Shown here in pieces: positions 30,017-63,802 of a stretch of DNA of 64,000 bases (positions are counted from its first letter, which is position 1; the number at the start of each line of letters is the position of its first letter). This DNA comes from Antedon mediterranea. Taxonomy: Eukaryota > Echinodermata > Crinoidea > Comatulida > Antedonidae. The DNA lies in the NCBI RefSeq assembly GCF_964355755.1, contig NC_092677.1, positions 16,524,101-16,588,100 on the forward strand, in the 5' to 3' direction. The position numbers and the translations under genes were made by a program. The notes under the pieces are model-generated. The model was not told the DNA's origin. It did no database searches and saw only the letters and a list, made by a program, of their open reading frames with translations.

Positions 30017-33000
30017 ATGGCTGCCTCCGTGTCCGTCATGCCGTTTTTACGGAGGAGCTGCACATTTCTTAAATGTTTTCCAACTTACGCCGTACGAATA
30101 CAATGTGCATCTAGAAAACCATGGGAACCTCCGAAACATCCGTATGTTCAAATATTAGTACATTTATTGTTTAATTTAATAAGCATAGGCCTATAGAAGG
30201 TACATTTTATAAGACGTCGAGCTAGCTAGGCCTAGGCTAGGCCTAAGTAAGTTATTGTTTTTTGTACAAATAAGAAAGGTTGCCTGCCCGAGTGCCGCAG
30301 CTGACATGGAATGGCTACGAGGTCGTTTCGGCCAAAGACATTTCGACCAGTCAGTAGTCGTTTCGTCTTGTTTTGGCCCTGACAGCTAACAAACTAGGCC
30401 TATAAACAATTTATTATTAATTTATTTAAAAAGTAAAATTTAATGTAGGGGGCCTATTTAATATTAATTAACTAGCCTAGGTTAGGCCTCTAGAGCTAGC
30501 TAGGCCTATATTTCTTGAATTGAGAACTAGGCTAGGCCTAGGTAGTAGTCTATCCTATAATTTGATTTTTTTTAAAATTGTTTTTGATCAATATTAGGAT
30601 TGATTACTTGGCAACCAGACCACTTGATACAACTATTTATGAAAATGACATTACAAAAGAAAACGAAGAATTATTAAAAGAGTGGAACATAAAAAAGCAC
30701 CAGTATGACACAAGTCCACTGAAGGAAGCACCGTGGGAAAAAGGCAAATGGGTACCGAAATCAAAGAGAACAGGTTTAGTTGGAATGAAACTTGGAATGA
30801 TGAGACTATGGAATAAAGAGGGCGAACCATTAGCAACGACCGTAGTTCAGGTATTGCATTACTTAAAGATGTATTGATTGTCCTTTTGACTAATTCTAAA
30901 AAATTTAAAAAAAAAACCAGGCGAAATGTAATCAAATTAATTTACCTATTAATTATGTACACTTTTTGTTTTTGGCTCAAATTTTTTACTTAAAGTGAAT
31001 AACGTTAATATTACTTTTTTTGATATGGCCAATTTAAATTTAGAATATTTTCACCTTTTTTGTGTTTCAAGGGACAATACATCTTTAATACTAGAAATCA
31101 GGAAAGGCAACTTAACTTCAAAACTTTCAGTAATATAAAGCTCTAACCCATTCTGTACATTTATAATTTTCTTGCAGAATATCATTCATTGGCATGATAC
31201 CATAGGCCTACCTTTGATTTACATCTATGCTTATATAGCGCCCTCTATAATTACCGAGAAGGCAGTAGTGATTATATTTGTCGCATTATGCAGAAAAAAT
31301 GTCTTGACCAGTGGCGTAACAGTTGAGCACGTACTGGCTTATGGGGGCCCCCTGAGTAGTGCCCAGAGGAAAAAACAGCCATTAAAATAGGCCTATGTTG
31401 AAAAAGGCTAAAAATGGCCGAAGCCTGTTACGCTACTTCTCTTGACCCGTACTGTAACAGTGCCAATTTAATCAAAAATAGTGTTTTTATTTTATATTTT
31501 TATAAACAATAATAAACAAAAATGTATTCTTGTTTGTTATAGTAACATTTTTATTTGATTTTGTGTGCATTTGTTTTCCAGGTTTTAGAAAACACAGTAC
31601 TGAAGTATGAAAGCCCTGAGGAGTATAAATATAGTTCAAAGCGTGGAAACTACGCTGCATTAACAGTTGGGTCCAAAAACATACCACCGGATTCTGTAAG
31701 TAGAAAGATCTATACAAAGATTGTTGTCATTTATAATTAGACAGTTTTATTATTGTGTAAGTAGTATTCAATAGAATCTATCCTTAATAATTTATTTAAT
31801 AAATATTCAATGTAATATTCTTGTACTGTGCCTTCATCAGTGCTTATTAAACTCAATGATATCTTTGTGCTGGGTGGCTTCAAAGTCTACTCAGCCTAAG
31901 CTTGTTTTTAAGGCCTTCTATTAGAGTCTAAATTCAACACAGCACATACCACTGGATATCGTATCCATTATTTGTTTGTAAGTACCCTTGACAGTGGACA
32001 CCCCACGCTCTACATGTCTCTCGCCACATCATTCTAACCCTTGCTTTATCTGTTTTATTTCAGCGTGACAGAAGCTATATCGAACTGTTTAAAGGAACAG
32101 GTGTCCCTGTTAAAGATTTTTTGGCAACATTTACGATATCTGAAAATGCCAAGCTTCAACCAGGTAACTTTATTTTTATTCTGTATGAGAATTACCAATG
32201 ATGGAAAATTAGGTTTCTTATTGACTGTTTGTTGTCATATGACTCTAAATCAAATTTCCACTGGTTCATTGACCGACCAGTTAGAACACAGTCTATAGTA
32301 ATGCTGTGTGGCTTATTGTTTGTAGGACCAGTTGGAACACAGTCTATAGTAATGCTGTGTGGCTTATTGTTTGTAGGACCAGTTAGAACACAGTCTATAG
32401 TAATGCTGTGTGGCTTATTGTTTGTAGGACCAGTTAGAACACAGTCTATAGTAATGCTGTGTGGCTTATGGTTTGTAGGACCAGTTAGAACACAGTCTAT
32501 AGTAATGCTGTGTGGCTTATGGTTTGTAGGACCAGTTAGAACACAGTCTATAGTAATGCTGTGTGGCTTATGGTTTGTAGGACCAGTTAGAACACAGTCT
32601 ATAGTAATGCTGTGTGGCTTATGGTTTGTAGGACCAGTTAGAACACAGTCTATAGTAATGCTGTGTGGCTTATGGTTTGTAGGACCAGTTAGAACACAGT
32701 CTATAGTAATGCTGTGTGGCTTATTGTTTGTAGGACCAGTTAGAACACAGTCTATAGTAATGCTGTGTGGCTTATGGTTTGTAGGACCAGTTAGAACACA
32801 GTCTATAGTAATGCTGTGTGGCTTATGGTTTGTAGGACCAGTTAGAACACAGTCTATAGTAATGCTGTGTGGCTTATGGTTTGTAGGACCAGTTAGAACA
32901 CAGTCTATAGTAATGCTGTGTGGCTTATGGTTTGTAGGACCAGTTAGAACACAGTCTATAGTAATGCTGTGTGGCTTATGGTTTGTAGGACCAGTTAGAA

Positions 33001-35051
33001 CACAGTCTATAGTAATGCTGTGTGGCTTATGGTTTGTAGGACCAGTTAGAACACAGTCTATAGTAATGCTGTGTGGCTTATGGTTTGTAGGACCAGTTAG
33101 AACACAGTCTATAGTAATGCTGTGTGGCTTATGGTTTGTAGGACCAGTTAGAACACAGTCTATAGTAATGCTGTGTGGCTTATGGTTTGTAGGACCAGTT
33201 AGAACACAGTCTATAGTAATGCTGTGTGGCTTATGGTTTGTAGGACCAGTTAGAACACAGTCTATAGTAATGCTGTGTGGCTTATTGTTTGTAGGACCAG
33301 TTAGAACACAGTCTATAGTAATGCTGTGTGGCTTATGGTTTGTAGGACCAGTTAGAACACAGTCTATAGTAATGCTGTGTGGCTTATTGTTTGTAGGACC
33401 AGTTAGAACACAGTCTATAGTAATGCTGTGTGGCTTATGGTTTGTAGGACCAGTTAGAACACAGTCTATAGTAATGCTGTGTGGCTTATGGTTTGTAGGA
33501 CCAGTTAGAACACAGTCTATAGTAATGCTGTGTGGCTTATGGTTTGTAGGACACAAACATTTTCATTTGCAATTCATAAAGCTCTGTCTACACTATCACA
33601 CTTTATGTGACAAAAAAATGTATATCACTTGGGCATATCACTACCATTATTTGGGCACGTCATACTTTTTTTGTCATCAAACTAGTTTGATAGTGTAGAC
33701 AGAGCTTAACAATGATTGATTTATTTTCAGGTACACCTTTGTTTGCATCACATTTTAGACCAGGAATGAAAATTGATGTTTGTGGGAAAACGTAAGTTCT
33801 ACTATAAACCTCTAAAATATACTAGGAGCCATGTCATTTTATTTCCTTTTTAACTTGTTTTTGCAACTATTTTAATTTTTCTTCCTGTTACTTCATCATG
33901 TGGTAAATAAACAAAAATGATTAACATTTAATATTTTGTAGTAAAGCTAAGGGTTTTCAAGGTGTGATGAAACGATGGGGTTTCAAAGGGCAGCCAGCCT
34001 CTCATGGAGCTACTAAGACACATAGAAGAATCGGTGGTTTAGGAGGTGGAGGGGTAGGTACAATTCTTCCATAAGGACTTAAATTTTCAATGCCATACAA
34101 TGCACAGAATTTAACAAAATTTAAAACTGTGCAGTACAATATAATTCTTTGCATTTATAAATAATACAGTACAATATATATAATATATTATATTACATTT
34201 TTTTATGATGTTCTAGTCGCCCAGTCGAGTCTGGCCTGGAAAGAAGATGCCGGGGATGATGGGAGATAGATGGAGGTGGAAGTATAATTTACAGGTAAGC
34301 ATTGTCTTTATATTTTCCTTTCTTCTAATTTTGAACTTTACTTCCACTACCATCATCTTCATCACTATGTCCACATTTAGAGTTGGAGTCCACTACATAA
34401 CTATTTTTATTTATTTACAATCTTTAAAAAGGATAACCCATGCAGATTCTTCATTAAAAAGTATGGTTCAAACAAAATACTTGAAAACACAATATTGGAA
34501 TTTTCTTTTTCACTGGTGATTTGGATATCAGGAAACAATACTCTATGAAGAACTGTACAATGAAGTATCATGTATTGTTAAATTGCCTTTGATATAAGAT
34601 GGTGCAAATAAATTGATGAAATGATTTTTGTAAAAAAATTCCTCAATTCAGCTTTTGTGTCTGCTACGGATTTGTATTTACCTTTGAATTGTTTTGATGC
34701 TTTTTATTCAGTTGTCATAAAGATACCGAGATATATATAATAGATATTGTTCTCACAATGAATATTTTATTACATTGATAGTCTTTTATAGCTTACATAA
34801 TGATTATTTTTTTCCTTTACCAGATTCTTCGCATTAATACCAAACACAACCTTTTATACATTGCTGGCACTTTCCCTGGATTCAAGTACGATTTTTGCAA
34901 GATTAAAGATTCACAAATTACTCCTCTCACGACTGCACCCCCCTTCCCAACATTCTCTCCAGATTTGGACGAGTCACTGGATGAAGATCTCTACGCTGAT
35001 CAAATTTTTAAATTTTCCGATGAGAGTATAAAATATGAAGAGGAAGAATGA
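30017..35051 (+). CDS. MRPL3: Mitochondrial large ribosomal subunit protein uL3m (8 coding exons, 356 aa)
   Basis: Structural protein of the mitochondrial large ribosomal subunit. Exons: 30017-30141, 30598-30850, 31582-31695, 32064-32163, 33731-33791, 33942-34053, 34217-34294, 34824-35051, in frame to 1,071 nt. Human MRPL3 is 348 aa. Conserved blocks are [12 protein letters not shown] in exon 2, [20 protein letters not shown] (exon 6), the [10 protein letters not shown] loop (exon 7) and [10 protein letters not shown] (exon 8). The Arg/Ser-rich N-terminus with few acidic residues fits a mitochondrial targeting peptide. The C-terminal tail is acidic. A poly(A) signal AATAAA is at about 35387-35396. 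Intron 4 carries a 1.28-kb minisatellite and a MITE. Confidence 0.97.
30180..30550. repeat. AGGCCT/CCTAGG tract in MRPL3 intron 1
   Basis: Repeated TAGGCCTAGG and GCTAGCTAGGCC words at both ends of the intron. Sequence between is unremarkable. Confidence 0.7.
32274..33553. repeat. 51-bp minisatellite, 25 copies, in MRPL3 intron 4
   Basis: Twenty-five nearly identical 51-bp units (GGACCAGTTAGAACACAGTC..., ending TTGT/GGTTTGTA). Main variation is T/G in TTATTGTTT versus TTATGGTTT. As 51 is divisible by three and no frame has an internal stop, ORFs of 489 aa (plus) and 454 aa (minus) run right across it. They are not genes: they consist only of the repeat, and the MRPL3 exons on either side splice across them in frame. 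Confidence 0.97.
33577..33708. mobile_element. MITE family B, copy 1 (MRPL3 intron 4)
   Basis: About 132 bp with terminal inverted repeats TAAAGCTCTGTCTACACTAT / complement. Internally it has TATCACTACCAT and TTTGGGCA, shared with copies at 39743-39883 and 44466-44637. It starts 24 bp after the 51-bp array. Confidence 0.88.
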
Positions 35052-46930: not shown

Positions 46931-48460
46931 AGAATAAATTGCGCACCGCCGCGCCGCCTGGCGATTTCAATTAAAAATTTCACAAACACAACCACAACAG
47001 GCTTACAAAGTTTATCCGTGACAGATCATACAAAACTAGGCCTATGTTGTAAAACAAATTGTATTTGTACCCTCCCTCCTATGCTGCTATGGATGTGGTC
47101 AAAGAATATATATGTCATGTGGTGCATGTGGAGGTGTACAGTCTGTACTGCTGCTAGCAAAGAACTTCAAGTTCTTTGCTGCTTCAAGTTCTTTGCTGCT
47201 ATGTACACCAACACACGTCACACACGTCACCGCCAAAAAAGGGGTTATTCCAAATTAGAACGAGTGTTGACTTCTCTTTGGAAGAATACAGTACTACTAG
47301 GCCTAGGTCAGGTAGGCCTAGTAAGTTAACTAAGTAAGATCGTTTAATAAATTGTAGATATTTTCAATTTGAAAATAATTAAATAGTATTCGTTATATCG
47401 TTTTAATTATTCATTTACAATTCTATTTTTTTTGCAATTATGTGGACTACACTTTTTAATGCCACATGGAAACCCCCTCTGATACAATTGAGTCGACTAG
47501 ATACAAGGGGATTTCCCTTTCTTATCCGGAAGTTGATGAGATGATCGTCGAACCTGGATCATCCTCGCTGTTTGCTTTCGTTTTAAAAAAAGAAGAGTAA
47601 ACTCTATTTATAAACTATGGTTTGTAAACGAACGTATTTTAAATAGTAGAGTGGAATTAACCAATAACTAAGTCAGACCCTAGCAGTGCTATTTCAGTTC
47701 AGTCTGTACTGACTGATCCAAACAGTCTTGTTTTTAGATGCCCTTTCTTAGGAGGTCTCGGGGGAGGTCTGGTTTAGAAATAGGGCCTATTCTATAAAAA
47801 GTACTTTGATAGGCTAGACCTAGCAGGACGCTGAGTGTTCCACTTGCCCAGATAGGCTATTGTAATGGACTTTGATCTGTAGTGTTAGGCTTTGACGAAT
47901 TAATATGTTGAATTGTTGTTATTGCTATTTAATTTCATTTTGACATCTCATTTTTAAAATTGATTTGATTGAATTAGACACAAAGTTTCAGATTTAACAG
48001 TTCTTTTAAGTTCTTTTTTTTTGTGAATTGAAATTGTGTCGTGTACCATTAAATTTCATTTTGACATTAAAATGCGTACATGATATATATACTCACTTTA
48101 TTGTTATGTTTCCCAAAGAAGTGTCCCTAAGACATTCTCATTAATTCTAGCATTGATTAATTTATATTGAAAGTTGGAAGGGTTTTGAATTAAATCAATA
48201 AGCATTTTTGCTGTTTGTATCCCATGTCACGTACACAATTGATCAACCATAAACTTTGGTATGAAAAATCTTCTATCTTCAAATGTTTTATGTTATAAAA
48301 CATTGGAGAACATTTTCAACAATTTTTATTTAGAATTAACATTAAAGTTCCTGGTTATGCATTATTTCTGTGAGTTCTAAAAACAAATTCTAATTATATT
48401 GTTCGTGAAGCTCCTATGACACTGTTTCTTACTACTATTGTTTTTTCTTTTTTATTTTAG
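46931..48460. other. Intergenic / 5' region of the death-fold LRR gene
   Basis: It holds a hairpin-rich stretch near 47130-47220 (two inverted AAGAACTT/AAGTTCTT units within GGTGTAC...GTACACC). An ETS-type CCGGAAGT is at 47526-47533 and an IRF-like TTTCGTTTT at about 47576-47584. A first untranslated exon of the downstream gene is likely in 47500-47650, but I cannot fix its donor. Confidence 0.4.
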
Positions 48461-48462
48461 AA

Positions 48463-51400
48463 ATGGAGACAAGATATCTTATTGTCAACATGGCTAAATC
48501 AGGTAGAACTTAATGGAATTCAAAGACTATGAAGCTTGATTTTACAATCATTGCATATAACATTCACCCTTCCTTACCTTACAGATGATAGAATAATGTG
48601 TAATCATTTCAGACCAAGAAAATAATTATTTGCCATTACAAACTCTACTATGTTTGCATTTGCCTCATAATTTGCATTCAGAGTATATTTTGCTAAAGGA
48701 TAACCAAGATTGTTTCTACTTTACATACTGTATTTATAAATAAAGTTGTTTCTGTTGTTATTGTTTTTTAAGAAATATTTGTGTTCAAACAAGTTGGTAT
48801 GGTATTTTACATTTTTGTTTTCTTTTTTTCCTAGAAATATCTGGCAAATCTTTTAACCAGACTTTGGTATGTTTTTCAACTTGGTATGATGACCGATCCC
48901 TCATCACAAAACTGAAAGTTTTGTACCAAGGTTATATTGCAGATGCTGACATACACAATGCCACTATGACGATGGACTTAATGAAACATTTGACGAATTC
49001 TGGACATCTTAGTTCAAAAAATCTAACCCTTCTATATGATACCATAAAAGCTACTAAACAGTTTGGTATTGTAGACGAGCTTCGAGTTCACATACCAGTA
49101 CCATCATTTTCTAGTGCTAAAGAGATGGTTATTTCAAAATTCAGTCATCATCAACAAAAAGTTCTGAATTTGGGTAATGTTCTAATAGAGGAGGATGTAA
49201 TAAAAATTGACAATATTTACAATGATCCACCAAAGAAGTATAAAGATGGATGGAACCTTATACTTCATCTACAACACAAAACCATCATATGTGAAGCAAA
49301 AATGGATGAATTTGTGGAGACCTTAAAAATTCTTAAAATTCCCCATGCTGTGGACATTTTTACTAAAGGTATATAGCCTACATTAATTCATTTTCAATAG
49401 TACATTTTGCAATGTAGCACTACTGTATTAGAAAGATCTTAAATTGATGCAGGCCAAAGCATAGTATTTGATACTACAGTTAAATGAAATGTATTATCAG
49501 GTAGTATAAAATATTAGGAAGTTGAAATATTTAAACTCTACTGAAATTTAATATAGAAAGACACAATGTATCAAGTGGAAGACAATATTGATTAGTTTTG
49601 TAGCATACAAATTAAATAATATTTGCTACAAGAAGACATAATATTTACTATTATTTTAAAACCGTTTTCAATGAAATTCAACTCTTGCATTTATAGTCAT
49701 TGTTTGCTAAATAATGATTGAACTGTGATAAATTGTCAATTTTCTAAATATGTCTTTTTCAGCCATTAATGTATTTTTCTATTATTATTAAAGAGGCTCA
49801 ATTACACTTAACTCTGAAACGTAAACGAGGAAGATCTAACTCAAGCTATCAACCTCCTTCGTCATCAGAAAGAAACCTTGATGAGTATCAACCTCCTCCT
49901 GGCCAAAGTACAAATCCTGTTGAGATTTTAGATCATCTTAACAAACATAAAGGCAATCTGAAGTTTGATGATGCATTGGAATTTACTGATAAACTACAAG
50001 AGCTTGTTAACTACTACAGTCAGCGTGGTGTAAAATTAACCCTCATGACAGAAGGATGTATAGTCTTCCACTTATCTGTCATTGATAAATATGCGCTGAT
50101 AAATTTACGTGAAATCCATGATAGTGGACAACTTTTGAAAGACTTAGCTGAAATATTAGTAGCAGAGGAAAATCAGCAGAAATTGTTTCAAAAGGAATGG
50201 ATCACACACATTGATCAACTTGAATACCACAATGGACTTTGCATGCTCATAAAAAAAGGTAAACATGTTTTATCATGATATCTATATATACTGGGTTTAT
50301 CATCTAATTTTTCCCCCGAAGTACCCTTTCAGACACATTTGTAATTAGGTTATATGCATTATCATGCATATAACATATTGACTATAACCTTATTGATTTT
50401 GTCAGAATCTTTATTTATTTATTCTTTCCTTAGCACTATTTTGTTCGTCAATTATCTTGAGATCAATTTCATCAGCTAAGTCAATTTTTCAAAGTATATT
50501 CTTTATGGCCAGGAATCGATATGGTTATGTTTTCACGATGCGCAATCAAAAATTACGCGATATTAACGAAATCACGTTTGGAATCATATCTTCACAAGCA
50601 TGTATCATAATCAAATTTGGTACTCATAAATTTCATGGCATATATTTTTTTTTTATTCGATCGAAAACAACAGCAATAATTACCGCCACTAACAGGTTTG
50701 ATACAGACAAAGACAGGACTGTTTAAAGCACCTTGATTGGTCCTAACATTGATCAAGGGCTTCTCTCGTCCAATGCCCACCTTGACCAGAACGTCTGAGG
50801 CAGATACTAGATGCAGGGGCTGCCATATTAAGAGTCAGCAATGCTGATTGTAAACGGGACCCCAGCTCAGTATACAGCAGATTTCCAGATGGTCTCCCAT
50901 CCAAGCTCTAACCAGGCCCAACGCTGCTTAATTTCGGTGATATGACGAGAACCGCTGTTTCAACGTGGTAAAGCCGTATTTCATCATATGGCAATACAAT
51001 TACGTGCGTAGCGCACATAACGCATGTGTACGCGCGCTTATATTTTTAAAAATAGATTTTCCATGAAATTAAAGTACTTTTCAGGAAATTGTAAGCGTTT
51101 ACAAAATTTTTATGATTTTCGCGTTAAACGTTATATGCACTCTTTTTGTTTTACAACCTTTCTAAAATAATTTCATCATATTTTATTCACGTTTTAATTC
51201 GAAATTGCGTTATACGAGCACGTCAAAAGTACGGTGGCCCACAACTGTCACGCACACTATACAAATCATATTCACACAATTAAAGAAGAAATCACACAAT
51301 TAAAGAAGGAATCGCATATAAACAAAAGAAAGCATGAAAATATAAAACGAAATGCACAAATAAAGAAGAAATGTGCAATTAAAGAGCTAAGCATAATTAA

Positions 51401-54039
51401 AGAAGTCCGCAACAAATTCGAAAGCTCCTCGCACAATTATAGAAGTCCGCAACAAATTCGAAAGCTCCTCGCACAATTAAAGAAGTCCGCAACAATTTTG
51501 AAAGTACCTCGCACAATTAAAGTACAGTAGTCCGTATGGAACGCCATCACTGCCTCCGGCAGCAAACTTTAATTCTATTCGGCTCTTATTCGGCCCATTT
51601 ACCATTACGTTCGGCTCTTTCAGCATTCGGCGCATTTCTATTCGGCCCATTTACCATTACGTTCGGCTCTTTCAGCATTCGGCTCTTTTTTATTCGGCCC
51701 ATTTACCATTACGTTCGGCTCTTTCAGCATTCGGCTCTTTTTTATTCGGCCCATTTACCATTACGTGTTATAGATTTTAACATAACGCCAGTGCGCCCTC
51801 TTGGACTGGCGATGTTTGTCCGTTTTTGCTGTCCCATGTAGTTATATTGAGTTATTATTAAAGCCATTAAAATACATTACTCGCATTACATCAGTCAACC
51901 TTATTGGCGTAAGAGATGTGAATAGTGAAAATGATCTTATTAGTTGCACTATGGTTCTCAAATCACTTCACTACATGATAGAAAATACTGCTTTAGTTTG
52001 ATTTTCGTTTTCTTTGCATTGTTTGGATATATAATTTTGTTATTCTGAAATAAAATGATCAATCAAGTGAATTTTTAAAACAATCAAACGTTGACTTGCT
52101 TTTTTATAAAACAATTAAATACCCTTTTTTGTGATCTTTTATTTTTCTGTTTAATAGTGAAAGATGGGTTGTGCAATGTTTAGTTTCATTCATTTGCATA
52201 ACATTTCTACATAAATGATGATATTTAATTTTGCTGACACTGGGGCTTATGAAGTGAATAAAGAAATCACACAATTTAGAAGATTTTTGTAAAATTAAGA
52301 TTCATACATTTTTATTTATTATATCTTATCAATTAGCCAAATCAAAGACATTTGTTGAAAAAAGATCAGAAGAATCAAAAGCAGGTGAGGTATAATACTG
52401 TAAACACCATAATTATTTCAAGTTGAAATCGCAAATGAATATGCAAATGGACTTGAATTCAATTTAGGTCCACAAACATATTTATTCTGCTACATCAATT
52501 CTAATTCTCAATCTTGTATTCTAATGATTAAAACATTCAAGATGTCCGCAACCAATGACTTTCTTAATTTTACTGTACTAGTTGTTTAGTTACATTTTAC
52601 AATAATGTTAACTAGGGGTGGCTGTGGCCTATCTTGTTCAAAGTGATACATCTGCCAATACAATTTAAAAATAAAGTGAATTTTGACCACTTTCCACCAT
52701 TCCGGCTAAATTAACCTCCTGCAAAGCATATTACTGGGATGTATCTTTGTCTTGATATTAATAGAGAAATCACACGATGCATCGTATCAGCCACTGAAGA
52801 AGGAATTACCATTCAGTTCTGAACCAAGTGAAATAGAGTTATTACCAGGTGAATTACAGTTATTTCAATTCAGACCAATTACAAATTGCTTTTATTGGAA
52901 AGAGTGAAGCAAGCATAAAACTACCAGTTAAAAAGTAGTTTGTTTTATGATTTTTATTAATCATTCAAAGTTATCATTTATGTCTTTTAGAAGAATCTAC
53001 GTATTCAGTGCGTCCTAAATGGCCAAGCAGATATACTAAACCTAAAATAGGTAAAGTTTTATAGTATAAGTTTTTTTCGTTTCTGTTATGTTTACATATC
53101 ACTCAGTACTAGATTTTTTTATCTTTGTGAACGCATAGTTGTCGAGAAGATCTGGCCTCAATTCATGTAAGCTAGAAGTTCCCACAACAACCAGGAGAAC
53201 CTTTGCTGACAGATCTTTTGACGTCTAAGGTCCACGGTTATGGAACGATCTTCCAGTGACCATTCGGTCTGAAACTAATTTTGATAGCTTTAAGCGTAAA
53301 CTAAAATGTTTTTTTTCCAACAAGTTTATGGAACATAATTTTGATGTACAGCGCTTTTGATAATGGTTCATTCTAAGAGCGCTATATCAGATGTGTAATG
53401 TAATGTGATGTATACCAATAACTTTTTTTCTGCCACTACAGCATTGTATATATTACCTACATACACCATTTTGACAAATCTTTCCAAAACCATTTTCTAT
53501 ATAAAATATAATGAATCTATGAATGATTAAATCGGGTACTGTAGGTTGAACAATTTTATTGCAAACTGTTTCAATAGCAATTTACACTCGATTTGAACTT
53601 GTTGCTTTGGATGAGTTAGGTTATCCGGACAAACTCAACAAACTGTACAGTACGTTAAAATATAAACGTGAAACATGAAGGAACAACTTTGGAAGTTAAT
53701 TGTCTGGGCAACATAATATATATTAATATTTTGACATGAATTCATATCTACAATTCAGCAGCTTCTATGTTTTAATTTTCATTCTGAGGAGCTACAGTAT
53801 AACAGATTGGAATATACTATATAGATGAAATTAAGTAACCCACTTCATTAAAATGTTATAAAATCTACTTTATTATTTTTAATCTTAACAGCAAATTAAA
53901 ATTCATTTGAGTGATAATTATAAATTTGCCACTCAGTTCTAAAATAAAACAACATGAACCAAAACAAAGGTTCTGAATAAAGTGGCTTGAATCAAGTGAT
54001 AATTATGAATTTTGTGTTATTTTTGTATTTTTTTAAATG

Positions 54040-54071
<32 letters not shown>

Positions 54072-57000
54072 TGATAATTATAATTACAGTATTTTAATTG
54101 ACAACAATTACTGGTTAAATATTGCTTTTTCATCAATTATGAAATTAACCTCCTGTAAAATGATTATAAAATTTACCCGTTCTACCGTAATATTTTAATT
54201 CGATCAAGACTAATTAAAAGTGATAATTATAAAAGTGATTATCATTATAAATGTTTTAGTGATAAAAACTACTGGTTAGTTATTGCTTTTCATTGATAGG
54301 AAACTGGTGAGTTAATACTGAATTAACCTCCTGTAAAACAATACTATTGTATTTTTTTCTTTATTTCAATAGAGAAATCAGAAGTGCGATTTCATCGGTT
54401 AAGGAAGAAACTGGCACCCAGTTCTAAAATAAAGCGGCTTGAATCAAGTGAAACAAAGTTAGGTGAGTTATTATAGTTTTTATTTATTTTTTTTATAAAA
54501 TCTACCCTTTCCACCATAATATTTTAATTCAATCAAGACCAATTAAAAGTGATAAAAAACGGTTAATTATAAATTTTTAGTGCTAAAAACCACTGGTTAA
54601 ATCTTCTGAGATGCGCTTTATTTAATGTGCTGAGTGTACGTGTTGCGCCCAATTACGCACATGCTGAGCAAGTTTTGAAAAAAATGCCAGAAATGAAGAA
54701 ACTGAACAATCACAACGGTTATTCACAACTAAGTTGCAGCAGATAACAAAACAAAAAAGTTAAATAAACATTCATCTCTTGTTTCTCTGTCAATTTATAA
54801 ACAAATTTTTATTTTCTTTAGTATAATAATTTTTGTTTTGGTACCCAACAATTACACTTGCAGTCTACACCTTTTTCTATTTTTTTATGACCTCTGCAAA
54901 AACATTACAATATTGTTCCTGTACTCACAACTACTGTTACTGTTACAGTTGTACATATCACAGTACATTCATTTTCTGCTGTAAAATAAAATTATTGAAA
55001 TATACTATATAGATGAAATTAAGTAACCCACTTCATTAAAATGTTTTGACATGATGACATCATCAAAATTACAAATTTTATAAATCATGTGAAAGAAAAT
55101 TGATAGCGCAAGATAATAATTAAAAACTATGTTGCGGCGAATAACCACCTCTTGCTTCTGTCAATTTATTATGTTAAACGGGTAATAATTATAAGCTTTG
55201 TATAATAATTGTGTCATTACATTCAGAACCCAACAATTACACTTGCAGTCTACACCTTTTTCTATTTTTTTATGACCTCTGCAAAATCATTACAATATTG
55301 TTCCTGTACTCACAACTACTGTTACTGTTACAGTTGTACATGTAACAAAATAGTATAATCCCAAAATGTTATCGTCTTTATTATTTATAGAGGAATCAGA
55401 TATAGAGATTATAGAGGAATCAGATAGTTCAGACGGTTCTGAATCAAGTGACTCAGGTGAGCTTATTATATATTGTTACATTGTAATTGCAAGGAGAATC
55501 AGATGAATCTATTGAGTCAAAAACAGGTACTGTATGATATTAGTATACAGCATATTTAATATGTTATGACATCAACAATATGACCACTATTAATTATTTG
55601 TTAATTTCCCATATCTATATTACAAATAATTGTGGGCAAAGCCTTTTGTATGTTAAACTTTCCAGTACCAAAAATTAAAACAGTAAATTAGATTTTAACT
55701 TGTCACACATGCACACTAGCGCGCTGTTAAGCTAGGCCTAGGCTACACTAAAGTGCATGAACAGCTTATAGAGTACTGCTTTATCAGATTCTGTAAATAA
55801 ACATTATAACATTTTTTTTAATGTAAAAGGAAATACTAAACAAGAATCTAAACAGCCGATTTAGTAGATTTAAAATTTATTTATTTTAAAAGAATGTTAT
55901 TAAATAATAAATAAACAATATAAATATGGGGTTCATGCTCCTCTGTGTTTACTGTATAGTTAAATGTCGCAAATATTGTATACACTTAATTATCTATTGT
56001 AAGATTGTATAATATTGTAGTTTAAAAATATGAAGCATAACGTAGTTTAATAGGCAAAAAATTTAAGACAGAAATGTATTGATTTAAACAAAAGTTTTTT
56101 GTATTATTTTTTAGGTGATTTAAGTGAGTATGTAACGAGGAAACTCAAAGAAAAACATATTGATTTAAGAGGAAAAACTGAAGAATTATCTGAAGCAATG
56201 GAACATATGAAGATTACAAGTAAAGGTAGGTATAGAAAATACAAAATTGTGAAAACAAGCTTTTTATAACACGCTACCAGACTACTTCATTAAATCAGTA
56301 AATTTGGTCTTGTCGTGGTTGCGACTTAATAGATGAGATAATCGATTTAATATTTTAGATTATTTAGAGAATTGTTTCAGCTAAAATTTGGAAATAGGTC
56401 GGTAATCGTTAAGATAGGAAATAATTAATCTTTTCATGATTTCTGCCTCAGACATAATATTAATTCCCATAAAAATGTTATCCGATTCTGAGACAAATAT
56501 ATTATTCAATGTATAAACTCTAAGGCAATCAGTAAGATTGAATCAACTGAATGAACAAAATACCAAGCATTGTCACTGTTAGTTAGCATGTTGAGATATT
56601 ACAAAACACTCATTTACAGCTAAAGCTGTAATTTTTAAACAATTCATGAAATCATGATGCCCAGAATGTAGGTGGAAATCAAAGGTTTATATTTCTATTT
56701 CAAATTTTAAAGTGTTTTCTTCCGAACCTTTAGAAGTAATATTTTGTTATTTTGTGTACAGTACATTAATAATGGGTTTTTATTCATTAAAATACATATT
56801 GTTTATATGACTTAATATACAAAATTGGGTAAAAATATATAATTAAAAAAAAACAAATAATATACATAAATATGTTATTGAACAGGCACTTAATCAAATG
56901 TTGGCAAAAGCTCTGATTTGACCATCACAATTATAAAAATAAATTCAATTTGAAGCCCTTTTTAAAATTTTGATACAATATTGTCCGTTTTATTTATTGT

Positions 57001-60000
57001 CCAAAAACGTCATATTTCAATAAAAAATATAATTGTCACATTGATGATTTCTAAAAATAAATTGTATGAAATTGTTTTTGATCATAAATATACGCTTTTT
57101 ACCAATGTTTAATGTTAAATATTTTAAACAAAAATATTGTAATAATTTACCAAGGCAATGTACAAAATGCACTCTGTTAGGCTATGTCTAGGCTACATTA
57201 AAGTACATGAATATAAACTAGTGTTACTATGTTGCATGTACTGATATAATATCAATGTACAAAATGCACTCTGTTAGGCTATGCCTAGGCTACACTAAAG
57301 TACATGAATATGAACTAGTGTTACTATGTTGCATGTACTGATATAATATCAATGTACAAAATGCACTCTGTTAGGCTATGTCTAGGCTACATTAAAGTAC
57401 ATGAATATAAACTAGTGTTACTATGTTGCATGTACTGATATAATATCAATGTACAAAATGCACTCTGTTAGGCTATGCCTAGGCTACACTAAAGTACATG
57501 AATATAAACTAGTGTTACTATGTTGCATGTACTGATATAATATCAATGTACAAAATGCACTCTGTTAGGCTATGCCTAGGCTACATTAAAGTACATGAAT
57601 ATGAACTAGTGTTACTATGTTGCATGTACTGATATAATATCAATGTACAAAATGCACTCTGTTAGGCTATGCCTAGGCTACATTAAAGTACATGAATATG
57701 AACTAGTGTTACTATGTTGCATGTACTGATATAATATCAATGTACAAAATGCACTCTGTTAGGCTATGCCTAGGCTACATTAAAGTACATGAATATAAAC
57801 TAGTGTTACTATGTTGCATGTACTGATATCATATCAATGTACAAAATGCACTCTGTTAGGCTATGCCTAGGCTACATTAAAGTACATGAATATGAACTAG
57901 TGTTACTATGTTGCATGTACTGATATAATATCAATGTACAAAATGCACTCTGTTAGGCTATGCCTAGGCTACATTAAAGTACATGAATATGAACTAGTGT
58001 TACTATGTTGCATGTACTGATATAATATCAATGTACAAAATGCACTCTGTTAGGCTATGTCTAGGCTACACTAAAGTACATGAATATGAACTACTGTTAC
58101 TACTGTATGTTGCATGTACTGATATAATATCAATGTACACTAAATCAATCAATTGTGTGTGAAATGCTGAGTCAACATTCTACAGATAGTTATACCAAAT
58201 TTTTATCCTCTTTATTGCAATAGAAAAATCAGAGGATGTATTGTATAGGTCAAGAGATGTATTGTCAATTAGTTCTGAAATAAAGCAGCTTGAACCAAGT
58301 GAAACGAAGTTAGGTAAGTTTATTATAGTTGTTTATGATTATAAAATCTACCCGTACCATAATATTTTAATTCGATCAAGGCCAATAATTAAAAGTGATA
58401 GTTATAAAAAAATAATGGTTAAAAATATTGCTTTCCATTGATTAGAAAACTGTTGAGTTTATACTGAATTAACCTACTATTGGAAAGAGTGTAAACAAGT
58501 GGATTAATTAATTAACTCTTCTTCTTCTCTGTCAATTTATTGTGTTAAATTTGGTGTTACATAATATAAACACATTTTTATTTTCTTTAGTATAATACAT
58601 TTGTTTTGTCATTACATTCAGAACCCATCAATTACACTTACAGTCTACACCTTTTTCTGTTTTTTATATGACCTCTGCAAAAACATTACAATATTGTTCT
58701 CTGTACTCATAATTACTGTTACAGTTATACATGTAACATAATAGCAATCCCAAAATGTTATCGTCTTTATTTTAATAGAGGAATCAGATAATGTATTGTT
58801 TCGTTCAACAAAGGAATTTCCATATGGTTCTAAATCAAGTGAGTCAGGTTAAGGTCAAGTTATTATAGTTTGTGATAAATCTACTGTTATTTTAAATCAG
58901 AGCAAATAGAAATTCATTTGAGTGATAATTATAAAGTTGCCACTCAATTCTAAAATAAAACAGCATGCACCAACACAAAGTTCTGAATCAAGTGATAATT
59001 ATTTTAATTGACAACAATTACTGATTAAATGTTGCTTTTTAATCAATTATGAAACTGAGTAGTTAATACTTAATTAATCTCTGTAAAGCATACTAATGTG
59101 GTGTTATCTTGATTTAAATAAATAGTAAAATCCGAAGGGAAATTGTATAAGTCAATGGAGGAATTTACAATCGGTTCTGAACTAAAATGGGATAAAGCAA
59201 GTGAAACAAAGTTATTACAAGGTGAGTTAATAGTAGTTATAGTCTGTTATTATAAAATTTACTGTATAATTTTAATCCAGACCAATTAAAATGTATTATA
59301 ATTGGAAAGAGTGCAAAAAAGTGATCAAATCTACTGGTTAAATACTACTTTTTAATTTCTCATATAGTAATAATATTATTTGATTACTACATAATGGTTA
59401 TCATTATTATTTTTTAGGAGAATCTGTGCTGCATCCCAAATTGCCAATCAGATATGCTAAATCCAAAACAGGTAAGTTAGTACAGTTTATTTATCACAGT
59501 ACATTAATTTTCTGTTGTTAAATGTTTAATTTAATTTTGTTTATTTATTCAGGTATAAAAAAGATACAATTTAGCCAAAGGATAAAGGCATTGTATTACA
59601 AAGAAATCTTAGTATTATAAAAATATAAAAATGTTCACATTTAAACTTTACAATACACAATTATTAAAAGAAAAAACAAGAAAATACTGTACAAAATGGG
59701 CAATAACATTAAAATAAATCATCCAAATTATTACAATATAAAAAATATATTTATAAAATAATTAAATATAATTATAAATTAAACAAATCTAGTATTGACT
59801 TTGGTTAAACATACAGTTAATGATTGTATGTTACCATAGTCGGTAATAGATTTGTTTGTTTAAGTTATATATAGAGAACATAGTGTGGGTGTAAAGTTAT
59901 ACATTCTTGTTCCTTCACTCACTACTGTTATTATGTTGTATGTACTGATACAGTTGTATCCAGTTACAAAACAATAATAGGTATTTATATGATTTAATGA

Positions 60001-63000
60001 ATGAAGTAAGTAATTTACAATATAATGTTTTATTAATGATTACGATACGCTAATACCATGCTGAAAAAATAATAATCAAGAGTAGGCCTATTTAGAGAAT
60101 AAAATCAATCAACTACACAAGTGTTCCCAACACCTAAATTAAATATAATGGCAGAGTCAGATTAAGAAATCTATTTAGGTATAAAACAATACGTATAAAT
60201 AATAAAACTAAATAGTACTAAATATATCCTTTGAAGAACATTTAACATTCATGAATTTTGTGAATATTATTATGGTATACTAAGCTGCTCTAACAAAACA
60301 CTATATTTCATGTTATGTATAATTTATTTGTATTTTTCTTGTATATGGTTTTATCTTTAACTGATTGTATTGTATGGAGTGAGTGCAGAATCTGTTTGGG
60401 CTTTAGCCTATTCTCATTCCTGGTTATTTTTACATTGATGACCGAATAAATATTATTATTATAATTATTCACCATCTCCAAATCTGCCACTACGGCAATG
60501 AGAAAATGGGAAGTATGCGAAAAAGAGCACTCTGTATTTTAGATAATAATAATTCTTATTCGCATCCATAAAATACCATAAGCAAAATATAACGGTATAA
60601 TAAACAAAAAATAATTCAAGATTACAGGAGACTAAAAAGCTTTTTTATTTGGGTATTTCCCATTATTTCCTAACGTGTTCTCAGAACTCATCTTACTGCT
60701 TTATCAGATTCTGTAAATAAACATTATAACATTTTTAAAAGGAAATACTAAACAAGAATCTAAACAGCCCATTATATTATTTAGTAGATTTAAAATTTAT
60801 TTAAAATAGTATATTAAAGCATTATTGTAAGATTGTATAATATTGTAGTTTAAAATATGAAGCATAACAGTTTAATATGCAACAAATTAAGACAGAAATG
60901 TATAATTGATTTAAACAAAAGTTGTTTGTTTTAAGTAAAGGTGGCTATAGAAAATACAAAATTGTGAAAAAAAGTTGTTTATAGCATGCTACCAGACTAC
61001 TTCATTAAATAAGTAAATTTGGTCTTGTCGTGTTTGCAACTTAATAGTTGAGATAATCGATTTAATATTTTAGATTATTTAGAGAATTGTTTCAGCTAAA
61101 ATTTGGAAATAGGTTGGCTACCTTTAACATAGGAACTAATTAATCTTTTCATAATTTCTGCCTCAGACATAATAGTAATTCCCATAAAAATGTTGCTGAC
61201 CGGTTATCCGGTCGGATTCTGAGACAATATATTATTCAATGTATAAACTCTAAGGCATTGAATCAGTGAGATTGAATCAACTGTATAAACAAAATACCAA
61301 GCATTTCCACTGTTAGTTAGCATGTTGAGATATTACAAAACACTCATTTGCAGCTAAAGCTGTAATTTTTAAACAATTCATGAAATCATGAAGCCCAGAA
61401 TGTTTATATTTCAATTTCAGATTTTAAAGCATTTTTCTTCCGAAACTTTAGAAGTAATATTTTGTTATTTTGTGTACATTAATAATTTGTTGTTATTCAA
61501 TAAAATACGTATTGTTTATATGACTTATTATACACAATTGGGTAAAAATAAATAATTTTTATACGTAAACCATACATATTATACTTTGTACATAAATATG
61601 TTATTGAACAGAAACTAAATCAATGTTGGCAAAGCTCTCATTGTAAAAATAAATTCAATTTCAATCCCTTTTTAAATTTCTGATACAATACTGTCAGTCA
61701 GTTAGCAAAACGTCATTTGTTTTTCATCATATATATGTAATAACATTGGTAAATATTGTAAACTATATTGTAATAATTTATGTATTATGCTTAGTTTTCT
61801 ATTTCTATTAAAAGATACTGATGATGGCCAGCACTTAAGCTCACGTCCAAAGCTACCAAGTACAATGCAAGATGAAGATTACATAATAGAGGAAATATGC
61901 ACTTCTTTGAGGAGAGTTTGCAATTACATAATGCCTTATAAGGGTGAAGTCACTGATAGTGATATCATAAATATATTGACAATGGATAGGTATAAGAGGT
62001 TTACGAGGTTTAAGTGGTTTAGGTCAATGAGAGAAATGGAATACAAACATGAAAGATCAACAGAGGATTTTGGGAGAATGATTGCTCAATGTGTACTTGT
62101 TGCAGAAAATGAAAGTTACTTTTTATCACAAGTTGTTGAATTATGCACCGATGATGTAGTAAAAGGTCTGTCTAGTGAATTACAAAAATTCAAATTTAAA
62201 TATAATATTCAAGAATTTCATGGATATTATAGTTTTTCAGGATTTCATACAACATCATTTCTAATTCATCTACTAAGTAATGCACCAAGACTTCATAAGC
62301 TTGATTTAATGTCAGGTTTAACAAGTGATACTTTGATGAATACCGTTGATACTCTATCAACAATGAATGTTTGGTTGGAATTATATAGGTTTAAAATCAG
62401 GAAGAGTGATTTGAGTGATGTCAAGGGTACCTCATTAGCCATGCTACTGTCTATTTGCCCCAAACTGAGACACCTTGACATCTCTTCTTGCAGTTTATCA
62501 GGTGCTATTGTAGATTGTATGGCTACTGAGTGTGTTAGTAGGAAACTAGTGTTGGAACTAAATCGTCTTGATATCAGCAGCAATAATCTGACTGATATTC
62601 AAAGTACCTCACTAGCCATGTTACTGTCTATTTTCCCTAAACTGAGACACCTTGACATCTCTTTTTGCAGTTTATCAGGCGCTACTGTAGATTGTATGGC
62701 TAGTGAGTGTGTTAGTAGGAAACTAGTGTTGGCACTAGATTATCTGGATATCCGCAAGAATAATCTGAGTGATGTCAAAGGCTCCACACTAGCCATGCTG
62801 CTGTCTATTTCACGTAAACTGAGTACCCTTGGCATCTCTTCTTGTAGTTTATCAGGTGCTACTGTAGATTGTATGGTTATTGAGTGTGTTAGTAGGAAAC
62901 TAGTGTTGGAACTAAATCGTCTTTATATCCGCAATAATAATCTGACTGATATTCAAAGTACCTCACTAGCCATGCTACTGTCTATTTCCCCTAAACTGAG

Positions 63001-63802
63001 TAGCCTTGAAATATCTGATTGCCATTTATCAGGTGCTACTGTAGATTGTATGGCTAGTGAGTGTGTGAGTAAGAAACTAGTGTTGGAATTACATCATCTT
63101 GGTATCAACAAGAATAATCTGAGTGATATTCAAAGTACCTCACTAGCCATACTACTGTCTATTTCCCCTAAACTGAGTAGCCTTGAAATATCTGATTGCC
63201 ATTTATCAGGTGCTACTGTAGATTGTATGGCTAGCGAGTGTGTGAGTAAGAAACTAGTGTTGGAATTACATCATCTTGGTATCAACAAGAATAATCTGAG
63301 TGATGTCAAGGGTATCTCACTAGCCATGCTACTGTCTATTTCCCCCAAACTGGGAAATGTTAGAATTAATGATTGCAGTTTATCAGGTGCTACTGTAAAT
63401 TGTATGGCTATTGAGTGTGTGAGTAGAAAACTAGTGTTGGAACTAGATTATCTTGATATCAGCAAGAATAATCTGAGTGATGTCAAGGGCACCTCACTAG
63501 CCATGTTACTGTCTATTTCACCTAAACTGAGACACCTTGACATCTCTTCTTGCAGTTTATCAGGTGCTACTGTAGATAGTATTGCTAGTGAATGTGTTAG
63601 AAGGGAACTAGTGTTGGAACTAGATCATCTTGATATCAGCCGCAATAATCTGAGTGATGTCAAAGATACGACACTTGACTCATTACTGTCTATTGCCCCT
63701 AAATTAAAATACCTTTATATGAGAGAATGCAGACTACCCGGTGCTATAATTAATAATATGACCAAACACTTCAATAGTATACAAGGTCTATTTTTACATT
63801 AG
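48463..63802 (+). CDS. Death-fold / TRADD-N-like / LRR protein with mini-exon linker (15 coding exons, 1275 aa)
   Basis: Unnamed immune-receptor-like gene. Exons: 48463-48502, 48835-49368, 49794-50258, 52337-52384, 52765-52848, 52991-53050, 54373-54462, 55391-55456, 55494-55526, 56115-56225, 58224-58313, 58779-58847, 59126-59221, 59418-59471, 61815-63802, in frame to 3,828 nt; every junction is phase 1. Residues about 24-95 resemble a death-effector domain (LKVLYQGYI, LMKHLTNSGHLSSKNLTLLYD). Residues about 105-190 look like a second death fold. Residues about 225-345 (LTLMTEGCIVFHLSVI, GQLLKDLAEILV) resemble the TRADD-N-type alpha/beta domain seen beside death folds in invertebrates. Residues 347-613 are a Ser/Glu/Lys-rich linker. 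Residues 614-800 are helical and unclassified. LRRs follow, 7.5 units of 59 residues. No signal peptide, membrane helix, P-loop or NACHT is seen. Exon choice in the linker is the least certain part. Confidence 0.75.
50866..50980 (-). pseudogene. 5S rRNA-like sequence (5S pseudogene or SINE3 head)
   Basis: The minus strand closely follows 5S rRNA, including TACCACGTTGAAA, CGGTTCTCGTC, ATTAAGCAGCGTTGGGCCTG and GGATGGGAGACCATCTGG, with several substitutions (for example ATATCACCG for GATCACCG). A trailing unique sequence (50690-50865) could be a SINE body. It lies in intron 3 of the death-fold gene. Confidence 0.75.
51234..51530. repeat. Degenerate tandem repeat (CACAATTAAAGAAG unit)
   Basis: Irregular repeats of CACAATTAAAGAAG. 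Between 51400 and 51520 there are about three copies of a 48-bp unit with TCCGCAACAAATTCGAAAGC. The 98-aa ORF over it is a repeat by-product. Confidence 0.75.
51574..51770. repeat. About 53-bp tandem repeat (ATTCGGCCCATTTACCATTA)
   Basis: Four copies of a unit with TTCGGCCCATTTACCATTAC and GTTCGGCTCTTTCAGCATTC. Young and nearly identical. Confidence 0.88.
53131..53405 (+). mobile_element. LINE relic, reverse-transcriptase C-terminus
   Basis: The plus strand reads LEVPTTTRRTFADRSF, then GPRLWNDLPVTIR and FDSFKRKLKCFF with one stop between. This is the typical end of a non-LTR retrotransposon ORF2 (GPRLWN.LP..IR....FK..LK). It is followed by AGCGCTATATCAGATGTGTAATGTAATG. Confidence 0.75.
53925..54005 (+). 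pseudogene. Ghost mini-exon 1 (decayed copy of exon 54373-54462)
   Basis: CCACTCAGTTCTAAAATAAA and TGGCTTGAATCAAGTGA align with the live exon's CACCCAGTTCTAAAATAAAG and CGGCTTGAATCAAGTGA. This copy lacks a good acceptor, frame and donor. Confidence 0.65.
55770..57130. repeat. Segmental duplication, left copy (contains exon 56115-56225)
   Basis: It matches 60690-61790 in order over more than 1 kb: CTGCTTTATCAGATTCTGTA, AACAAGAATCTAAACAGCC, CCTCAGACATAATA, CTAAAGCTGTAATTTTTAAA and others. Divergence is modest with indels. Confidence 0.85.
57158..58138. repeat. 97-bp satellite, about 10 copies
   Basis: Units contain AATGTACAAAATGCACTCTG, TTAGGCTATGCCTAGGCTAC and TGTTGCATGTACTGATATAA. They are nearly identical, differing at a few sites (GTCTAGG versus GCCTAGG, ATAAACT versus ATGAACT). 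The array lies in the intron before exon 58224-58313. A single related word is at about 55728-55765. Confidence 0.95.
58930..58998 (+). pseudogene. Ghost mini-exon 2
   Basis: CCACTCAATTCTAAAATAAA and GTTCTGAATCAAGTGATAA repeat the same decayed exon pattern as 53925-54005. The flanks ATTCATTTGAGTGATAATTA are shared, so both come from one duplicated block. Confidence 0.65.
60690..61790. repeat. Segmental duplication, right copy (exon deleted)
   Basis: Copy of 55770-57130. At about 60932 the sequence jumps from intron to AGTAAAGGTGGCTATAG, the last bases and donor of the exon at 56115-56225, so nearly the whole exon has been lost in this copy. Confidence 0.85.

What the first reader, a model, noticed from the sequence alone, without database searches (positions are those of the whole stretch)
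48463..63802. Death-fold + TRADD-N-like + LRR protein with no NACHT domain
The 5' exons encode two death-fold-like domains and a TRADD-N-like domain; the last exon encodes NLR-style LRRs. In animal NLRs a NACHT ATPase normally sits between such parts. Here the space is filled by a low-complexity linker made of tiny exons, and I find no P-loop (GxxxxGKS/T) or other NACHT exon between 50258 and 61815. If the splicing is real, this is an NLR-like sensor/adaptor that must oligomerise without an ATPase. It could be an innate immune signalling protein private to this lineage. Alternatively two genes lie end to end.
Basis: partly seen in the sequence, partly recalled or inferred. Interest (0 to 1): 0.8.

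Follow-up and report, generated by a model that had tools for sequence, protein, structure and literature searches.

The report
ATPase-less relative of NLR immune receptors
This animal gene joins two death-effector-like domains and a TRADD-N domain to the tail and leucine-rich repeats of an NLR immune receptor but lacks the ATPase motor that NLRs need; it belongs to a family of at least a dozen such genes in this genome, so the motor-less design is real and kept by selection rather than a prediction error.

Summary
A 14-exon model (48463-63802, + strand) is open for 1265 aa with every junction in phase 1. It encodes a tandem DED-like exon, a TRADD-N exon, ten tiny linker exons and a last exon with an NLR-type pre-LRR (HD2-like) region plus about 15 LRRs. 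No NACHT exon or relic lies in the window.

C8:16.711-16.715 Mb carries the same exons in 4.2 kb with clean phase-1 junctions and no room for NACHT. At least 12 further last-exon copies exist, none with a NACHT found nearby. Three NLRs on contig C11 carry NACHT, winged helix, HD2 and LRR in one open frame; the window's last exon aligns with them only downstream of the winged helix. So the C-terminal half is an NLR cut just before HD2.

DED + TRADD-N + variable C-terminus, including LRRs without an ATPase, was described in other marine animals (PMC8195603). I rate this a new variant of a known kind. How it signals is inferred: ATPase-free clustering through DED/TRADD-N, or acting as a decoy of sister NACHT-NLRs. 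No RNA or protein evidence was available.

The parts
48463..48502 (+). first coding exon, METRYLIVNMAKS; donor CAG|GTAGAA, phase 1; a second in-frame ATG (MAKS) is possible
   Evidence: sequence
48835..49368 (+). tandem DED-like exon (first DED clear, second weak)
   Evidence: Pfam DED in 26/26 paralogs; cFLIP E 0.008 and caspase-8 tandem DED E 0.1 by profile; dN/dS 0.27-0.32 against paralogs
49794..50258 (+). exon with basic/Pro-rich lead and TRADD-N domain (domain about 49913-50257); motif G-C at residues 48-49 of the domain (EGCIVF)
   Evidence: TRADD-like_N in 9/25 paralogs; alignment A2; motif as in PMC8195603
52337..52384 (+). linker exon
   Evidence: in frame in the C9 copy
52765..52848 (+). 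linker exon
   Evidence: in frame in the C9 copy
52991..53050 (+). linker exon
   Evidence: the C9 copy carries an in-frame 27-nt deletion here
54373..54462 (+). linker exon, EKSE type
   Evidence: in frame in the C9 copy
55391..55456 (+). linker exon, acidic/Ser
56115..56225 (+). conserved linker ('D') exon GDLSEYVTRKLKEKHIDL..., the only linker exon recognised in the compact paralogs
   Evidence: homologues in G5 and G3 and in C4:35.57 Mb; identical in the C9 copy
58224..58313 (+). linker exon, duplicate of the EKSE type
58779..58847 (+). linker exon (donor at 58847 or 58838)
   Evidence: in frame in the G2 paralog
59126..59221 (+). linker exon
   Evidence: in frame in the G2 paralog
59418..59471 (+). 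linker exon
   Evidence: in frame in the G2 paralog
61815..62429 (+). last exon, first part: linker-like lead then HD2-like pre-LRR region homologous to the region after the winged helix of C11 NLRs
   Evidence: alignment A1; tblastn with C11 NLR open frames
62396..63802 (+). last exon, LRR part: about 15 LRRs as 7.4 units of 177 bp; stop codon at 63800-63802
   Evidence: Pfam; TRF

Best explanation
One gene makes a cytosolic, NLR-derived receptor or adaptor that lost the ATPase. Shown: tandem DED-like exon, TRADD-N exon, linker with a conserved exon, then the HD2-like and LRR tail of an NLR, with NACHT and winged helix absent; the arrangement recurs in a family under purifying selection. Inferred: the LRR tail binds a ligand or holds the protein inactive; on binding, copies are brought together and the DED/TRADD-N half nucleates a DED assembly that recruits DED caspases or FADD-like adaptors, with TRADD-N docking a TRAF/MATH-like partner. 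Clustering would come from ligand and death-fold contacts, as in DEDD2, TRADD or PIDD1, not from ATP-driven wheel formation.
For: Open, single-phase gene model; linker array far beyond chance; compact intact paralog G5 with the same exons in 4.2 kb; the D exon shared with the C4:35.57 Mb NACHT-less gene; at least 13 last-exon copies outside NLR frames, none with a NACHT found nearby; DED exons followed by TRADD-N: 15 loci, none with NACHT; same modules with NACHT between them on C11; last exon aligns with C11 NLRs from about aa 490 on only; dN/dS 0.27-0.42 for the DED exon, 0.24-0.41 for TRADD-N (two comparisons with G2 are saturated) and 0.35-0.48 for LRR; DED and TRADD-N identity.
Against: No transcript or protein evidence. 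The second DED is weak. The window's TRADD-N does not itself reach Pfam significance, and single-sequence structure models are too poor to decide. Nothing here shows ligand binding, oligomerisation or a caspase partner.
Confidence: 0.55

Rival explanations
1. Regulator or decoy: the protein shares DED and LRR types with the NACHT-bearing NLRs of the same genome and damps them, capping DED assemblies or sequestering ligands, as cFLIP and pyrin-only proteins do for other death-fold systems.
For: Same flanking modules as C11 NLRs; best profile match among solved structures is cFLIP, a caspase-8 regulator; no motor to drive assembly.
Against: The added TRADD-N domain and conserved linker exon go beyond a simple decoy; DED exons of the TRADD-N genes form their own clade away from NACHT-associated DED exons.
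Confidence: 0.25
2. Two adjacent genes: a DED-TRADD-N protein and a separate LRR protein.
For: 11.5 kb separates the TRADD-N and LRR exons here; a 95-99% copy of window 47.1-61.5 kb on C9 was not found to have the LRR exon.
Against: G5 has introns of only 383, 684 and 604 bp across the join, all phase 1; same order in 6 TRADD-N loci and in the C4:35 Mb genes; linker exons preserved in frame in paralogs.
Confidence: 0.08
3. Decaying or non-functional by-product of NLR family turnover.
For: Neighbours include a broken copy (C8:16.704-16.708 Mb with a TGA), and G3 has a one-base shift at its first donor.
Against: The window gene is fully open over 14 exons; dN/dS is below 0.5 in the DED, TRADD-N and LRR parts; zero indels in 219 linker-exon bases against the G2 paralog while introns carry many.
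Confidence: 0.1

Closest known systems
Lineage-specific expansions of DED/Death + TRADD-N proteins (NCOA6 and DEDD2 clades; Kaur et al. 2021, PMC8195603)
   Same: N-terminal death-fold unit (1-3 copies) followed by TRADD-N and a variable C-terminus; C-termini include LRRs (SH3 + LRR in sponge; GT4-TRADD-N-LRR in cephalochordates, hemichordates, cnidarians) and need no STAND ATPase; expanded in marine animals, including echinoderms.
   Different: Here the C-terminus is the HD2-like + LRR tail of an NLR, without SH3 or GT4; the linker is an array of duplicated mini-exons. I did not find this exact combination in the main text; the supplementary list of architectures could not be read.
Animal NLRs with DED-NACHT-LRR order (in this genome, contig C11; DED-NACHT also in sea urchin, amphioxus and Nematostella, PMC2575513)
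   Same: Same type of tandem DED exon, same HD2-like and LRR sequence family.
   Different: No NACHT or winged helix; TRADD-N added.
PIDD1 (from general knowledge)
   Same: LRR plus death-fold sensor/scaffold without an ATPase.
   Different: LRR at the N-terminus, ZU5/UPA core, death domain rather than DED; no homology tested.
DEDD2 / TRADD adaptors
   Same: DED + TRADD-N (DEDD2) or TRADD-N + death domain (TRADD), no ATPase.
   Different: No LRR; not expanded in vertebrates.

Membership tests
NLR (NACHT-LRR receptor) | NACHT ATPase with Walker A/B | tested here: not met
   no NACHT match in the window or tandem cluster; no relic by tblastn; no NACHT exon in the contiguous compact paralogs
NLR (NACHT-LRR receptor) | winged-helix segment after NACHT | tested here: not met
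   homology to C11 NLRs starts at about aa 490, after the winged helix
NLR (NACHT-LRR receptor) | HD2-like pre-LRR region and LRR tail | tested here: met
NLR (NACHT-LRR receptor) | N-terminal death-fold effector domain | tested here: met
DED + TRADD-N expansions of Kaur et al. 2021 | death-fold unit directly followed by TRADD-N | tested here: met
   same order in 15 loci
DED + TRADD-N expansions of Kaur et al. 2021 | small residue + Ser/Cys motif in the strand turn of TRADD-N | tested here: met
   GS in the alignment consensus, GC in the window; in the low-confidence model it lies at a turn between strands
DED + TRADD-N expansions of Kaur et al. 2021 | placement in the DEDD2 clade by phylogeny | not tested
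   no reference set held
Tandem-DED proteins (caspase-8, cFLIP) | two DEDs in tandem | tested here: inconclusive
   first DED supported; second only by a weak profile alignment along caspase-8
Tandem-DED proteins (caspase-8, cFLIP) | structural match of the DED pair | tested here: inconclusive
   single-sequence model mean pLDDT 52

The most novel reading that the evidence does not exclude
A family of at least a dozen NLR-derived sensors that lost the ATPase at or near their origin, gained TRADD-N in part of the family, and signal by ligand-driven DED/TRADD-N clustering: an NLR that works without a motor, with motor-bearing sisters in the same genome for comparison.
Probability: 0.3. Interest if true: 0.75.

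Novelty: new variant of a known kind. Interest (0 to 1): 0.52.

Why it matters
The NACHT ATPase is treated as the switch and motor of NLRs. A family that keeps the NLR tail and death-fold head but drops the motor, while motor-bearing sisters persist in the same genome, is a natural test of whether LRR sensing and death-fold signalling can be coupled without ATP-driven assembly, or whether such proteins serve as regulators. It also warns that NLR counts based on NACHT miss these genes.

Tried and rejected
NACHT exon or relic between 50258 and 61815: not found. Two-gene reading: judged unlikely on compact paralogs and phase. Chance origin of the mini-exons: rejected. Zinc-finger, TM7S3 and other odd Pfam hits on the LRR exon: taken as chance matches to the repeats. 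Structure prediction without an alignment: TRADD-N model pLDDT 61, DED model pLDDT 52; fold search of the TRADD-N model gave frataxin-like alpha/beta matches at Z 4.3 or less and no Foldseek match under E 0.001, so it decides nothing. Genome search with the Pfam TRADD-like_N model finds only two other loci and misses this family. The tree of HD2-like regions does not settle whether NACHT was lost once: C11 NLRs fall next to the C4:26/35 Mb NACHT-less group with weak support, and one NACHT-less clade is not rejected (AU p 0.23). Literature search for NACHT-less NLRs gave no direct precedent.

Full report
Where it lies. The window is contig C8:16524101-16588100 of a 354 Mb, 18-contig animal genome.

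The gene. The tiny linker exons looked like the weak point, so I scanned for small phase 1-1 exons by fixed rules: 8 in the 11.6 kb stretch against 0.045 expected in shuffles, none on the reverse strand and 0-1 in other stretches. Three linker exons match the G2 paralog (C8:16.603 Mb) without an indel in 219 exonic bases, while the flanking introns carry many gaps; in the C9 copy the only exonic indel is an in-frame 27-base deletion. Much of the linker arose by local duplication: blocks at 53.9-56.8 kb recur at 58.9-61.6 kb, and the repeat of the D-exon block at 60.8-61.2 kb lacks the exon itself.

What the parts are. The 48835 exon: Pfam DED is hit in all 26 paralogs, best E 8e-9, and a profile of the family finds cFLIP (E 0.008) and runs along the tandem DED of caspase-8 (E about 0.1). 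The second DED is therefore likely but weak. The 49794 exon: Pfam TRADD-like_N is hit in 9 of 25 paralogs, best 1.1e-5, though not in the window copy. Kaur et al. (PMC8195603) give a tiny residue followed by Ser, sometimes Cys, in a strand turn as the hallmark of TRADD-N; the family consensus has GS and the window GC at such a place. The last exon: about 200 residues of pre-LRR sequence, then about 15 LRRs.

Where the last exon comes from. Searching the genome with the pre-LRR part finds two groups. One group lies in last exons of genes without NACHT: the C8 cluster, C4:8.07 and 8.10 Mb, C4:26.41 and 26.42 Mb, and C4:35.48-35.65 Mb. The other lies inside long open frames that also carry a NACHT, on C11 and C4. 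The C11 frames have a P-loop (GEGGIGKTT) and, in L077, a Pfam NACHT at 6e-18. With these as queries, the window's last exon aligns from about residue 490 on (28-40% identity, E down to 1e-116), that is from after the winged helix, and nothing in the window matches the NACHT or winged-helix part (best E 0.13). So the C-terminal half is an NLR tail cut before HD2. The names winged helix and HD2 are assigned by position and known NLR layout, not by a structure.

One gene or two. The paralog G5 (C8:16711138-16715298) is the cleanest answer: DED, TRADD-N, D exon and LRR exon in 4.2 kb, introns of 383, 684 and 604 bp, all junctions phase 1, no stop, no NACHT. G3 (C8:16.667-16.672 Mb) has the same layout but a one-base shift at its first donor, so it may be broken. 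At C4:35.57 Mb the DED exon is followed by two short basic exons, a D-like exon and the LRR exon, with neither TRADD-N nor NACHT. Genome-wide, 15 of the 150 best DED exons are followed by TRADD-N and none of these by NACHT; 34 others are followed by NACHT, four of them by NACHT and then the same pre-LRR region. These counts rest on capped hit lists and are lower bounds.

Constraint. Between tandem paralogs, dN/dS is 0.27-0.42 for the DED exon, 0.24-0.41 for TRADD-N where it could be computed, 0.49-1.02 for the HD2-like region and 0.35-0.48 for the LRRs. Both halves are kept as protein; the tail changes faster, as expected for a recognition part. DED exons of TRADD-N genes form a supported clade (96/91) apart from NACHT-associated ones, with one C5 TRADD-N locus outside it. 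The DED exon of a C4:35 Mb NACHT-less gene lies far from that clade, so head and tail have partly different histories. Whether NACHT was lost once is unresolved (AU p 0.23), although the shared lead of the last exon and the shared D exon favour one origin.

How it probably works. Shown: the parts, their order, the missing motor, conservation. Inferred: the tail senses or restrains; the DED/TRADD-N head recruits DED caspases, FADD-like or TRAF-like partners; assembly is driven by ligand and death-fold contacts instead of ATP. The main rival is a regulator or decoy of the sister NACHT-NLRs; sharing of both DED and LRR types with them and the cFLIP match leave this open.

Known or new. Kaur et al. 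describe DED/Death + TRADD-N proteins with variable C-termini, among them SH3 + LRR in sponge and GT4-TRADD-N-LRR in amphioxus, hemichordates and cnidarians, and 18-23 DEDD2-clade copies in echinoderms. DED-NACHT NLRs are known from sea urchin, amphioxus and Nematostella (PMC2575513). The ATPase-less design is thus a known kind; the NLR tail without its motor, the mini-exon linker and the NACHT-bearing sisters make it a new variant. The supplementary architecture lists of that paper could not be read, so a prior listing is not excluded.

Noticed in passing
window 47088-61538 against G000:C9:20294709-20329314: A 95-99% identical copy of the 5' gene and linker lies on another contig, interrupted by insertions and with part of it repeated; its LRR exon was not found, and 6 kb beyond its last matched block (L085) no LRR frame is seen. 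Recent inter-chromosomal duplication or misplaced haplotype.
   Followed up: partly
window 57156-58139: Minisatellite of about 10 copies of a 97-bp unit at 97% identity, inside the linker intron.
   Followed up: no
window 51222-51766: Dispersed repeat with dozens of copies genome-wide, many in nearby pairs on opposite strands, so probably the ends of a mobile element; it contains the 52-bp tandem units at 51586-51766.
   Followed up: no
window 60284-60470: About 185-bp repeat, 98-100% identical to many places in the genome: a recently active short element.
   Followed up: no
G000:C8:16593331-16632429 (L034, L010, L086, L064): Next tandem paralog (G2): DED exon 73% identical to the window, but its TRADD-N exon is only 45% identical and of the C7/C4 type with a long repetitive lead, suggesting exon swapping or gene conversion between paralogs.
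   Followed up: partly
window 62396-63703: LRRs occur as 177-bp units (two LRRs each) at about 85% identity, so the array has expanded or been homogenised recently.
   Followed up: no
window 32192-33698: Long open frames on both strands made only of a short tandem repeat ([17 protein letters not shown] units); not a gene.
   Followed up: no
G000:C7:2.18-2.22 Mb, C3:32.71-32.74 Mb, C1:13.04 Mb, C5:3.94 Mb: DED + TRADD-N loci with no matching LRR exon found; their C-termini are unknown.
   Followed up: no
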